Origin: Prochlorococcus marinus XMU1419
GTDB taxonomy: Bacteria > Cyanobacteriota > Cyanobacteriia > PCC-6307 > Cyanobiaceae
DNA length: 64,000 bases
Assembly: GCF_017695955.1 (NCBI RefSeq)
Contig: NZ_JAAORO010000002.1
Span: forward strand, 62,001-126,000
Reading direction: 5' to 3'
Under the pieces are notes generated by a model. That model saw only the letters and a list, made by a program, of their open reading frames with translations, was not told where the DNA came from and searched no databases. The position numbers and the translations under genes were made by a program. Below are positions 9,533 to 24,213 of the stretch, one piece after another (the first letter of the stretch is position 1; each line of letters starts with the position of its first letter).

Positions 9533-9726
9533 TTTCGTTGAATCATAATTTTCGTTTCTAAACTATTTGATTTTAACTGGTTTTTTTTTCCTATCATCGT
9601 ATTGACTTATTTGGAATATAGAGGTTTTATTTTGATTTGAAGACTATATTTTTATTTTATAAGTTTTAATTTAATTTAACTATGAATTTTAGTATTGTAA
9701 ATTTGTAGTTAAAATAAAATTCATAA

Positions 9727-10003: not shown

Positions 10004-10216
10004 TTAATTTCTATAAGGTATTACGGGAATTTCTATTGGATAGCCCTTTTTAAGATTAGATTTTTTTTCTCGCAATTCTTTTACGCAATTTAATTGCTTT
10101 CTCTCCTTTTCGCAGAATTTTTTTATTTGGTAATCAGTGAGTGAAAGTGATGAATTATTAAATGTGAAGAAGGTTATTAAAAAAAAAGATAAATTAAATA
10201 CTATTTTCATTGCCAT
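10004..10216 (-). CDS. Small secreted or periplasmic protein
   Basis: A 70-aa protein with a clear signal peptide (IVFNLSFFLITFFTF, probable cleavage near SLS or SLT) and a short mature part. The mature part holds two Cys in FCEKERKQLNCVKEL and a proline-containing tail. An internal ATG at 10210 would remove MA and is equally good. Convergent with the 89-aa gene, eight bases apart. No family recognised. Confidence 0.6.
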   Translation of the reverse strand: MAMKIVFNLSFFLITFFTFNNSSLSLTDYQIKKFCEKERKQLNCVKELREKKSNLKKGYPIEIPVIPYRN

Positions 10217-10254
10217 TTTGAATTTAAGTTATGATTTAATATCCTTTTTTTTAT

Positions 10255-10527
10255 TTAATTGTAGTTGTTTATGATCTTTTTGAGTTCATCTTTACTCAAA
10301 TCTGTTGATATAAAAACTTCTTGAGCTGTCTTCCCTTTTCTTGCGATTGCTTTATATCCGTTTATAGTTTTTACTGATAATCTAATTATTAACTTAGAAG
10401 ATTTACCCCTTACTCTTGATATTACAGCAGGAGTTATTGTTTTAATATTAACGTTTAAGGCTAATTTTTGAAGTATTGGAATTAGTCCTTCAATGTTTGT
10501 ACTATGATTTAAAACTAGTCTTCCCAA
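10255..10527 (-). CDS. DUF2103 family protein
   Basis: A 90-aa protein starting MGRLVLNHSTNIEGLIPIL, with VISRVRGKSSKLIIRLS in the middle. This matches my memory of the small cyanobacterial DUF2103 family, often labelled putative metal-binding. The metal-binding claim is not evident: there is one His and no Cys. The basic middle with S-R-V-R-G suggests nucleic-acid contact as an alternative. It closes the small-gene array; petN follows on the other strand after about 115 bases. Confidence 0.65.
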   Translation of the reverse strand: MGRLVLNHSTNIEGLIPILQKLALNVNIKTITPAVISRVRGKSSKLIIRLSVKTINGYKAIARKGKTAQEVFISTDLSKDELKKIINNYN

Positions 10528-21592: not shown

Positions 21593-21644
21593 AAACTTTT
21601 AGAAATACACATCACTTGCTAGAATTATCAAAACTTAATCCACA

Positions 21645-21708
21645 CATCTGACAGTTTCGGGTGATTTATTAATATAAATTCCCCGTCAGATGGAGGCCAA
21701 CCCGAAAC
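21645..21708 (+). promoter_or_regulatory. Structured rpsB leader: interleaved stems (pseudoknot or switch)
   Basis: Two perfect complementary pairs occur in interleaved order just upstream of rpsB. Stem A is CATCTGAC at 21645-21652 with GTCAGATG at 21685-21692. Stem B is GTTTCGGGT at 21654-21662 with ACCCGAAAC at 21700-21708. The order A-B-A'-B' permits an H-type pseudoknot or a choice between two folds. A GGAGG at 21692-21696 sits between A' and B', too far (25 bases) from the ATG to act as a normal ribosome-binding site. B' is followed by CCTTTTT. An S2-autoregulatory leader is the most likely reading. Confidence 0.72.
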
Positions 21709-21721
21709 CCCTTTTTAAATT

Positions 21722-22426
21722 ATGGCTGTTGTATCACTATCTGAAATGATGGAAGCTGGTGCTCATTTTGGGCATCAAACTAGACGTTGGAATCCCAAGA
21801 TGTCTAAGTATATATATTGCGCGAGAAATGGAGTTCATATTATTGATCTCGTAAAAACGGCATTGTGTATGAACAATGCGTATAAATGGACCAGAAACGC
21901 TGCAAAAAGTGGTAAACGTTTCCTATTTGTCGGCACAAAAAAACAAGCATCAGATGTAGTGGCTCAGGAAGCTACTAGATGTGGGGCTGCATATGTAAAT
22001 CAAAGATGGCTTGGAGGGATGTTGACTAATTGGACCACAATGAAAGCTAGGATTGAAAGATTAAAGGATCTTGAAAGAATGGAAAGTAGTGGCTCAATAG
22101 CAATGAGGCCTAAAAAAGAAGCTGCAGTTTTAAGGAGAGAACTTGAAAGACTACAAAAATACTTGGGCGGACTCAAGGGTATGAGAAGATTACCAGACGT
22201 AGTTGTTTTGGTTGATCAGAGAAGAGAATCTAATGCAGTACTTGAAGCTAGGAAATTAGATATCTCACTAGTATCAATGCTGGATACAAACTGTGATCCT
22301 GACTTGTGTGAAGTCCCAATTCCATGTAACGATGATGCAGTTAGATCTGTGCAACTTATTTTAGGAAGACTTGCAGATGCTATAAATGAGGGCAGAAAAG
22401 GTTCTAATTCTGAAAGAAAAAATTAA
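21722..22426 (+). CDS. rpsB: 30S ribosomal protein S2
   Basis: A 234-aa S2 with classic segments [31 protein letters not shown] and [10 protein letters not shown]. Assembles late on the 30S head-body junction. Followed by tsf after 44 bases, the order found across bacteria. No Shine-Dalgarno sequence at normal distance: the bases before ATG are CCTTTTTAAATT, so translation initiation may depend on the structured leader upstream. Confidence 0.98.
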
Positions 22427-23136: not shown

Positions 23137-24213
23137 TTGAATAATTTCAATAATTACTTAAATATTGATGAAATTAATTCTCAATTAGAGAGAGCAGACA
23201 TAAAAAAAAGAAAATTAATTCGCAATATCCATAGAGAATATGAATTATATTTTAATCTCGTTAGAGATCTTCTTTATGTTTCGATAGAAAAAGGGCTTAA
23301 CGAAATATATAATTATCCAACAATTAATAATAATTCCTTAAATGAAAATGAATTTTTTTGCTTCTTTGAAAAAAAAATAAGTAAATTAATCTGTAATTAT
23401 CTGCCTTTTTTAACAGTAGAACAATTAAAAATATGTGAAATTGAGAAAAACAAAAATAAGGAATTTGATTTTAAGACCTTAGAAAGATCCTTAAAAACAA
23501 AGATTGATCAAAAATCAAAATTTCATTATGAAGATGGTTTTCAATTAGAAGAGCCTATTAAGTTCCAGATTAATAAAGATATTTCTAATACTTCTGGATA
23601 TTATCAAGCTGATAATTTTGAGGAATTAGTATTACTTGATTTAGATAATAATTATCAAAATAATAATTTATCAAATAACAATATTTTTGAAAATATAGGA
23701 ATTGAAAAACAATTTGTTTCCTCTCTACTTGAATTAATAGATGAAGGGAAGATCGAAAAATCAAGATATTCAGAAAAAGACAATATCAATCAAATGGATA
23801 TTTCACCCAAATATCAAAATTTTAAAAATTTTGATTTAATAGATAAGTCATTGGAAAATGTACTATTGAATCTTTCACATGAGATTAACCAAGAATTATT
23901 TAAGGCCAATTTAATAAAAAAGATGATATCTAAAGATTCCTTTTTATACTTAGTAGGCAAAAAATTGATGCTAAAACACCCACAACCTTTTATTATTAAT
24001 TTCGAATTCAATATAAATCAGTCATCATCAAACGATGTTAATCTTCAAAGTATTATTTTCTTCTATATATCTACTGTTGAGTTAGAGTTTAAAAATTTAA
24101 ATCTTTCTATTCAAAGGAATAAAATAAATGAGCTAAAAAATCAATTTCAGCGTTTGATTAAAAAAGAGAAATACTGGAGGCAAAAAGAAATAACTTTGAA
24201 TAAGATACGTTGA
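23137..24213 (+). CDS. Hypothetical protein between tsf and recG
   Basis: A 358-aa soluble protein of unknown function. It starts with TTG at 23137, ten bases after tsf; no in-frame ATG fits near the 5' end. It is rich in Asn, Lys and Ile. The N-terminal 110 residues look helical and conserved (KKRKLIRNIHREYELYFNLV), a low-complexity Asn-rich linker spans about 165-195, and the C-terminal 120 residues end in a basic coiled coil. It appears to sit in the rpsB-tsf-recG transcript. No motif suggests an activity. Confidence 0.75.
   Translation: MNNFNNYLNIDEINSQLERADIKKRKLIRNIHREYELYFNLVRDLLYVSIEKGLNEIYNYPTINNNSLNENEFFCFFEKKISKLICNYLPFLTVEQLKICEIEKNKNKEFDFKTLERSLKTKIDQKSKFHYEDGFQLEEPIKFQINKDISNTSGYYQADNFEELVLLDLDNNYQNNNLSNNNIFENIGIEKQFVSSLLELIDEGKIEKSRYSEKDNINQMDISPKYQNFKNFDLIDKSLENVLLNLSHEINQELFKANLIKKMISKDSFLYLVGKKLMLKHPQPFIINFEFNINQSSSNDVNLQSIIFFYISTVELEFKNLNLSIQRNKINELKNQFQRLIKKEKYWRQKEITLNKIR

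What the first reader, a model, noticed from the sequence alone, without database searches (positions are those of the whole stretch)
21645..21721. Interleaved perfect stems in the rpsB leader: pseudoknot or two-state switch
Seen directly: CATCTGAC (21645) pairs with GTCAGATG (21685), and GTTTCGGGT (21654) pairs with ACCCGAAAC (21700), in A-B-A'-B' order, 17 bp in total without mismatch in DNA that is otherwise about 70 % AT. A GGAGG lies between A' and B' but 25 bases from the rpsB ATG, and no ordinary Shine-Dalgarno sequence exists. B-B' followed by CCTTTTT also resembles a terminator, so A-A' versus B-B' may be mutually exclusive. Control of rpsB-tsf by S2 through its leader is known in E. 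coli; a cyanobacterial leader of this shape is inference.
Basis: partly seen in the sequence, partly recalled or inferred. Interest (0 to 1): 0.72.

Follow-up and report, generated by a model that had tools for sequence, protein, structure and literature searches.

The report
Pseudoknotted S2-protein mRNA leader (rpsB)
The stretch just before the gene for ribosomal protein S2 in this Prochlorococcus-like genome most likely folds into a conserved RNA knot of a kind already described in other bacteria, probably letting S2 limit its own production; what stands out is that the gene here lacks the usual ribosome-docking signal.

Summary
The interleaved stems are real, correctly placed and conserved. 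They are helix P1 (21645-21652/21685-21692) and the pseudoknot helix (21654-21662/21700-21708) of the rpsB (S2) leader, published in 2009 (Meyer et al.) for Proteobacteria, Cyanobacteria and some Firmicutes, and related to Rfam t44 and rpsB. In 219 cyanobacterial rpsB leaders read here P1 covaries strongly. The pseudoknot core GGGU/ACCC is nearly fixed; compensatory changes in its other pairs occur only outside the window's family. The homologous GGGU in E. coli is required for S2 autoregulation (literature). Best reading: S2 autogenous repression of rpsB-tsf, inferred from homology.

The terminator idea and the A-A' versus B-B' switch are not supported. GGAGG is a core element of the leader, probably not a displaced Shine-Dalgarno (SD).

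Possibly new detail: 71 of 71 leaders from other families have an SD-like site, starting -1 to 5 nt from the pseudoknot's end (68 measured); 0 of 148 leaders of the window's family have one. There the knot is a near-fixed 9 bp, and a CCC beside P1' (137/148 vs 3/68) offers GGG a second partner. SD-like sites are rare in this family generally, so the loss itself is ordinary.

The parts
21598..21625 (+). putative promoter; conserved -10-like box TAGAAT at 21620-21625 (extended, TTGCTAGAAT)
   Evidence: Consensus scan (10 such sites in the region, 12.5 expected from shuffles, so the match alone means nothing). A TANNNT box sits at the same place relative to P1 in 70 of 79 close leaders, and at -20 to -22 in up to 55 of 69 family-draw and 57 of 71 other leaders. 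No start-site data.
21641..21644 (+). conserved unpaired CACA box 5' of P1 (shared with E. coli)
   Evidence: last three letters are RCA in 210 of 216 rows
21645..21652 (+). P1 helix, 5' strand (A)
   Evidence: 7 of 8 pairs with double changes; Rfam t44 alignment
21654..21662 (+). pseudoknot helix, 5' strand (B); GGGU at 21659-21662 is homologous to the E. coli GGGU whose deletion abolishes autoregulation
   Evidence: literature passage
21663..21684 (+). variable insert: P3 hairpin 21663-21669/21674-21680, then CCC at 21682-21684 that can pair with GGG 21659-21661 instead of the pseudoknot
   Evidence: Nested fold; CCC beside P1' in 137 of 148 rows of the family, 3 of 68 others
21685..21692 (+). 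P1 helix, 3' strand (A')
21692..21696 (+). GGAGG core element between P1' and the pseudoknot 3' strand; probably not a Shine-Dalgarno
   Evidence: GGAGG in 145 of 148 rows of the family, GGTGG in 3; 44 of 71 others (45 of 68 with the slightly wider window); E. coli has GUGGAGGC
21700..21708 (+). pseudoknot helix, 3' strand (B')
21722..22426 (+). rpsB, ribosomal protein S2 (presumed repressor and regulated gene)
   Evidence: TIGR01011 326.2 bits
22471..23127 (+). tsf, elongation factor Ts, next gene downstream
   Evidence: TIGR00116 225.8 bits

Best explanation
The element is the cyanobacterial form of the S2 (rpsB) leader. Shown by sequence comparison here: an RNA with helix P1, a variable insert, and a pseudoknot between the GGGU strand of the P1 loop and ACCC just 3' of P1, directly before rpsB-tsf. 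Inferred from homology with E. coli: free S2 (perhaps with S1) binds and stabilises the pseudoknotted fold when S2 exceeds available 30S subunits. The knot ends 13 nt before the AUG here, inside the region a 30S subunit must occupy, so translation of rpsB, and with it tsf, falls. In the leaders of other cyanobacterial families the knot ends next to an SD-like site. In Prochlorococcus and the rest of its family there is none and the knot is a near-fixed nine pairs, so repression there must act on SD-independent loading of the 30S subunit.
For: Structure: pairing-blind counts on 216 rows, P1 double changes in up to 105 rows per pair; distinct rows 0.943 paired vs at most 0.775 in shuffles. MAFFT alignment of 43 leaders: 98 double-change cells vs 31.9 in shuffles (0 of 500 as high), covariation 0.389 vs at most 0.121 in slid registers; P1 98.4% and pseudoknot 90.2% paired. 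RNAalifold finds P1 unaided. Family: Rfam t44 aligns to 21623-21702, 27.3 bits, E 4.7e-4 in a 221-base search. A model built from cyanobacterial leaders picks out the E. coli leader, 21.7 bits, E 2.9e-4, second only to the window's own leader in 64.6 kb. Rfam t44 and/or rpsB (RF01815) match at 5 of 20 other leader loci, below threshold. Distribution: 133 of 291 phylum genomes match at E<=0.1, all among the 138 of the window's class, 0 of 153 outside it; of 57 matched genomes whose rpsB place was known, 55 have the match within 80 nt 5' of rpsB on the same strand, and 2 weak ones (G289, G369) do not. Function: S2 represses rpsB-tsf in E. coli (passages of PMC10931766); deletion of GGGU at -72 to -69 abolishes this (passages of PMC2834685), and those letters are L231:303-306, the pseudoknot strand. 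Position: SD-like site -1 to 5 nt from the pseudoknot end in 68 leaders of other families.
Against: I found no experiment in any cyanobacterium. Rfam gathering thresholds are not met; with t44 only 1 of 116 class genomes matched at E<=1 (G459, 21.9 bits), and the Synechococcus elongatus control did not ring. Within the window's family the pseudoknot shows no double change; outside it, the double changes in its inner six pairs come from two families only. On distinct rows the pseudoknot's paired fraction (0.856) barely exceeds shuffles (max 0.846), because it hardly varies; and because of its UUU run its outer five pairs still pair in 57-60% of cells when slid by one, vs 91.7% in register. Outer pairs 8 and 9 often fail outside the family (42 and 21 of 71 paired; derived). 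The review says the E. coli mechanism is unclear because SD and start codon are not in the operator. Single-sequence folding is not exceptional.
Confidence: 0.78

Rival explanations
1. Two-state switch between A-A' and B-B', with B-B' acting as an intrinsic terminator (transcription attenuation).
For: B-B' is followed by CCCCTTTTT in the window. Nested folds with either helix are close in energy: -19.7 with P1, -18.0 with B-B'. In 19 of 216 leaders the nested minimum-energy fold is B-B' with P1 lost. The terminator scan lists a different, overlapping site, 21645-21663 with tail ATTTATTAAT (3 sites in the region, 1.1 expected).
Against: The T run is not conserved (69 of 79 close, 8 of 69 family-draw, 2 of 71 other leaders). 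Fixed spacers and joint conservation favour both helices together. The scan could not have listed B-B' (loop limit 8), so its silence says nothing.
Confidence: 0.06
2. Family-specific switch: GGG of the pseudoknot strand pairs either with ACCC (knot, repressed) or with CCC beside P1' (P3 extension, open), and S2 shifts the balance. A refinement of the best explanation.
For: CCC directly 5' of P1' in 137 of 148 leaders of the window's family and 3 of 68 others. The nested minimum-energy fold pairs GGG next to P1' in 123 of those 148.
Against: The GGG does not vary (219 of 219 rows, by anchoring), so covariation cannot be tested. By eye the first C may simply belong to P3's basal pair. Nested folding cannot form the knot, so it favours GGG-CCC by construction; it also pairs GGG next to P1' in 30 of 68 other leaders, most without the CCC.
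Confidence: 0.2
3. The GGAGG inside the knot serves as a structure-positioned Shine-Dalgarno in the window's family, brought near the AUG by the 9-bp pseudoknot helix.
For: GGAGG in 145 of 148 leaders of the family, and no other SD-like site.
Against: GGAGGC is equally a core element in E. coli, which has its own GAGG before the AUG, and is in 44 of 71 leaders that have an SD-like site. Three leaders of the family have GGTGG. SD-like sites are below background in this family anyway (7 of 142 vs 18 of 142).
Confidence: 0.07
4. A conserved RNA leader that serves mRNA stability or initiation (S1 binding) and not S2 feedback.
For: I saw no demonstration of S2-dependence in Cyanobacteria. Prochlorococcus may rely on S1-based initiation (passage of PMC5607370).
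Against: Found at rpsB in 55 of 57 matched genomes compared, and homologous to a leader with shown S2 control.
Confidence: 0.12

Closest known systems
rpsB motif of Meyer et al. 2009 (PMC2704228; section 6 read in full; passages)
   Same: Precedes rpsB; P1; P2 short or absent in Cyanobacteria; P3 variable; pseudoknot between J2-3 and the 3' extension after P1; Cyanobacteria named among holders.
   Different: There the pseudoknot is given as five pairs (three in Firmicutes); here it is nine. Relation to the SD is not discussed in the section read. The paper's alignment file was not opened, so whether Prochlorococcus rows are in it is unknown.
E. coli rpsB (S2) leader / T44 RNA (tff), Rfam RF00127 t44
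   Same: CACA box, P1 followed by GAGGC, GGGU in the loop, AACCC after; E. coli GGGGU/ACCCC would make the five-pair knot; Rfam t44 aligns to the window.
   Different: Below Rfam's gathering score (27.3 vs 44 bits); E. coli has a longer insert, a GAGG near the AUG and a 5-pair knot.
Rfam RF01815 rpsB
   Same: Matches 4 of 20 cyanobacterial rpsB leader loci at the leader.
   Different: All below the gathering score of 40; the window itself gave no match to it up to E 5.
rps2 leader, cluster 394 of Voss et al. 2009 (PMC2662882; abstract and passages seen)
   Same: A predicted structured element before rps2 in model cyanobacteria.
   Different: Apparently two member sequences (column heads not seen); no pseudoknot or mechanism in the passages seen; the four genomes named in the abstract do not include marine picocyanobacteria.

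Membership tests
S2 (rpsB) leader, Meyer 2009 rpsB motif | Located directly upstream of rpsB | tested here: met
   Window 21645-21708 before rpsB at 21722. The 219 leaders were taken by their rpsB start, so they do not test this; model matches do: 55 of 57
S2 (rpsB) leader, Meyer 2009 rpsB motif | Helix P1 supported by covariation | tested here: met
S2 (rpsB) leader, Meyer 2009 rpsB motif | Pseudoknot between the loop strand J2-3 and the 3' extension after P1 | tested here: met
   present in the rows counted, with double changes only outside the window's family and few of them in the core
S2 (rpsB) leader, Meyer 2009 rpsB motif | P2 short or absent in Cyanobacteria, P3 variable | tested here: met
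   P1-to-GGGU span 13-15 nt and insert 9-160 nt in 216 rows; in L175 and L224 an insertion lies at the P2 place (by eye)
S2 (rpsB) leader, Meyer 2009 rpsB motif | Represses rpsB in response to S2 | not testable with these tools
   Stated for E. coli in passages read, not for any cyanobacterium
Rfam RF00127 t44 | Reaches the gathering score of 44 bits | tested here: not met
   27.3 bits; 0 of 116 class genomes over the cut-off (stricter filters)
Rfam RF01815 rpsB | Reaches the gathering score of 40 bits | tested here: not met
   No match in the window up to E 5; 26.2-30.1 bits in 4 of 20 other leader loci
Intrinsic terminator / attenuator | Stable hairpin followed by a conserved U run | tested here: not met
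   U run in 69 of 79, 8 of 69 and 2 of 71 leaders

The most novel reading that the evidence does not exclude
In the family of Prochlorococcus the S2 leader has been rebuilt for SD-free translation. The pseudoknot helix gained a fixed outer G-C pair reaching into the place where other cyanobacteria keep the Shine-Dalgarno, and a lineage-specific CCC beside P1' gives the GGG a second partner. S2 would then throw a GGG switch (CCC = open, ACCC = closed) that controls SD-independent, perhaps S1-dependent, loading of the 30S subunit at the AUG.
Probability: 0.2. Interest if true: 0.62.

Novelty: new member of a known kind. Interest (0 to 1): 0.4.

Why it matters
How S2 represses rpsB is not understood even in E. 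coli: the review read says the operator does not include the SD or the start codon. Cyanobacteria give a natural series, with the same knot beside an SD-like site in the other families sampled and without one in the family of Prochlorococcus. That makes the question of how a remote pseudoknot blocks initiation directly testable. If true, it would also show ribosomal-protein autoregulation in one of the ocean's most abundant phototrophs (recalled), where SD-based models cannot apply. And in what was tested, the current Rfam models at their thresholds miss the cyanobacterial branch.

Tried and rejected
Exact pattern for the whole motif in viral contigs: 0 matches. Exact B/B' pattern over the phylum: 9 of 291, all in the window's genus; its gap limit (38) and its fixed ATGGAGG exclude most leaders seen later, so it is no evidence of absence. 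Rfam at gathering thresholds over the whole window: nothing. Terminator reading rejected. GGAGG as a displaced SD judged unlikely. The thought that a missing SD is special to rpsB was rejected: SD-like sites stand at 2 of 44 window ORFs (inside-gene background 5 of 44), at 7 of 142 in ten 20-kb stretches of the window's family (background 18 of 142) and at 22 of 117 in ten stretches of other families (background 6 of 117) (crude first-ATG starts); an earlier, looser count gave 3 of 50 window ORFs.

Rows dropped: of 80 loci, L050 and L055, whose contigs end before the leader. First-pass helix finding maximises pairing and misplaced P1 in some rows (e.g. L090, L101, L113); the counts used are on pairing-blind columns, where L175, L216 and L224 were left out of the P1 count (insertion at P2, or a wrongly anchored piece) and the anchors of L216 and L224 were reset by hand for the pseudoknot count. 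For alignment A1 and the model, 52 references were preselected (15 family rows chosen by me, class rows with shorter inserts, near-duplicates left out) and 43 of these were aligned; the nine dropped (L169, L181, L183, L184, L204, L208, L215, L220, L225) have longer inserts, and L208 has a P1 of only 5 pairs. All nine are in the blind count.

Papers: PMC3616713, PMC6900531 and PMC2525966 are not held, so the E. coli probing work is known to me only through review passages. PMC7247131 (one passage) names an rpsB-linked leader only for Bacteroidia; PMC7368042 has none of my four terms. No R-scape was run, and P3 covariation was not counted.

Full report
Names. 'The window's family' is family f1; I take it to be the family of Prochlorococcus and marine Synechococcus (Cyanobiaceae, a recalled name), and its class to be the photosynthetic Cyanobacteriia (recalled). 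Only the loci have titles: of the 80, 78 are titled Prochlorococcus and two (L063, L071) Synechococcaceae.

What is there. By chance alone, interleaved perfect 8+9 stems occur about once per shuffled window in such AT-rich DNA (27 hits in 30 shuffles); with at least 8 G or C among the 17 pairs there were 0 hits in 200 shuffles and only this one in the window. That filter was chosen after the fact, so the case rests on conservation.

Conservation. I read the DNA before rpsB in 219 leaders: the window and 78 of the 80 loci (two contigs end too early), 69 from a draw of the family (186 of 201 genomes searched had an rpsB match; 8 of the 69 are in the window's genus) and 71 from other families of the class (106 such genomes were searched). 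No two of the 219 are identical over the leader, though the same or sister strains may appear in two draws. A script that seeks pairing found P1 and the pseudoknot in 219 of 219. Counts were therefore repeated on pieces aligned without regard to pairing. P1 (216 rows) is paired in 95.9% of cells in register and 24-43% when slid; seven of eight pairs have double changes, in up to 105 rows per pair. Inside the window's family (148 rows) four P1 pairs have double changes, with C-G in place of T-A at the third pair in 57 rows.

The pseudoknot core GGGU/ACCC was the anchor, so its conservation is partly by selection. Of the other five pairs, the first (C-G) is kept in 219 of 219, with T-A in two rows (L218, L222, both family f19); the next in 216, with A-T in three rows (L198, L206, L219, all family f18); the last three in 208, 190 and 169. 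Inside the window's family the helix is frozen: 142 of 148 are GTTTCGGGT/ACCCGAAAC and the other six differ by one-sided G-U changes. On distinct rows the pseudoknot's paired fraction, 0.856, is only just above the shuffles (mean 0.816, max 0.846). On a 43-row alignment with both helices, 93.9% of cells pair against 81.9% in shuffles and at most 53.7% in slid registers, and 98 cells have double changes against 31.9 (0 of 500 shuffles as high). These rows are related, so the shuffle figures are not probabilities.

Pseudoknot rather than alternatives. The distances that a pseudoknot constrains are almost fixed: P1 start to GGGU 13-15 nt and P1' end to ACCC 6-9 nt, while the insert between varies from 9 to 160 nt. 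This fits one compact knot with a free P3 arm better than two hairpins that exclude each other. Energies do not decide: P1 with P3 -19.7, nested B-B' -18.0, and the two helices alone as duplexes -10.3 and -13.0 kcal/mol; the tools do not score the knot. The terminator reading fails since the T run is largely confined to close Prochlorococcus.

Kinship. Rfam's t44, which covers the E. coli rpsB leader, aligns to 21623-21702 at 27.3 bits, E 4.7e-4 in a 221-base search, below its gathering score. Over 116 class genomes t44 gave one match up to E 1, at the rpsB leader of G459 (21.9 bits; L230), and none over the cut-off. A covariance model of 43 cyanobacterial leaders (P1 pairs only) finds the E. 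coli leader with 21.7 bits and E 2.9e-4 in a 64.6 kb search, second to the window's own leader. In 20 other leader loci, Rfam rpsB (4 loci) and t44 (3 loci; 5 loci in all) match at the leader, all below threshold; three unrelated families (two microRNAs and PK-repBA) reached similar scores in L192, so single scores of this size mean little, but agreement of two S2-leader families at the same place does. The E. coli sequence reads CACACACGUAUC ... CCGGGGUG ... GAUACGUGGAGGCAUAACCCCAAC: the same CACA box, P1, GGGU, GAGGC and ACCC in the same order. Meyer et al. 2009 (section read) describe this arrangement and name Cyanobacteria; Voss et al. 2009 (passages) list an rps2 leader in model cyanobacteria.

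Distribution. With the new model 133 of 291 genomes of the phylum match at E<=0.1. By the table's order all are among the 138 of the class and none among the 153 outside it (strict filters). For 57 of the 133 I could compare with the rpsB place: 55 match within 80 nt 5' of rpsB, and the weak matches of G289 and G369 do not; the other 76 were not compared. Of the five class genomes missed, G062, G333 and G367 have the leader in the earlier script (L138, L184, L229), G167 gave no rpsB match either, and G423 was not examined.

Mechanism. In E. coli, S2 represses rpsB-tsf, with help from S1 (review passages), and deletion of GGGU at -72 to -69 abolishes autoregulation (passages of PMC2834685). Counting back from the E. 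coli ATG, -72 to -69 is L231:303-306, which reads GGGT and is the pseudoknot strand homologous to window 21659-21662. That ties the pseudoknot strand to function by homology. What follows is inference: S2 in excess binds and fixes the knot, which in the window ends 13 nt before the AUG, and 30S loading is blocked.

Relation to the Shine-Dalgarno. In 71 of 71 leaders outside the window's family an SD-like word (GGAG, AGGAG, AAGGA or AAGGAG) lies between the knot and the start codon; in the 68 measured it begins -1 to 5 nt from the last paired base of B'. In 0 of 148 leaders of the family is there one. There the base after ACCCGAAA, which in a number of the others is the first G of the SD, is C (T in one row) and pairs with G of the B strand, making nine pairs. 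SD-like sites are below the inside-gene background at ORFs of this family and of the window, and one paper states that Prochlorococcus likely does not rely on SD for initiation (passage). The loss is thus part of a general trend, but it means that the S2 circuit, if it works here, must work without an SD. GGAGG inside the leader is a core element, kept in E. coli and in 44 of the 71 leaders that have an SD-like site, with GGTGG in three leaders of the family.

A possible family-specific switch. CCC directly before P1' is in 137 of 148 leaders of the family and 3 of 68 others, and can pair with the GGG that the knot needs. It may simply close P3 (by eye), and GGG does not vary, so this stays a proposal.

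Novelty. New member of a known kind. The relation of the knot to the SD, its nine-pair form and the CCC were not mentioned in the passages and sections read. The listings of nine paper searches (one more failed) showed no work that I recognised as treating this leader in Prochlorococcus; only open-licence papers are held and no supplementary file was opened. On rechecking, no probability needed changing.

Noticed in passing
L198, L206, L219 (family f18): A divergent branch: pseudoknot CTACGGGT/ACCCGTAG, no GGAGG core (the spacer ends TTTGA) and no CACA box, yet P1, knot and an adjoining SD-like site are kept.
   Followed up: partly
L218, L222 (family f19): Pseudoknot core TGGGT/ACCCA, a C-G to T-A double change, and GGTTG in place of GGAGG; the covariance model did not place a match at rpsB in these two genomes (G369, G289).
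   Followed up: partly
L175, L224: Long insertion between P1 and the GGGU strand, at the place of P2 in the proteobacterial motif (by eye).
   Followed up: no
window 21597-21644: Before the leader lies a stretch (CTTTTAGAAATACACATCACTTGCTAGAAT) seen with small changes in several same-genus leaders, presumably the promoter; promoter-consensus matches in the region are no more frequent than chance.
   Followed up: partly
window 9675-9723 and 10181-10260: Two other interleaved perfect 8+9 stems, AT-rich, found in the chance scan; probably chance.
   Followed up: no
window 23137-24213: 358-aa ORF with TTG start after tsf, no NCBIfam match at E 0.001.
   Followed up: no
genome G167 (same genus, 99% complete): No rpsB match and no leader match in an otherwise near-complete assembly; probably an assembly gap.
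   Followed up: no
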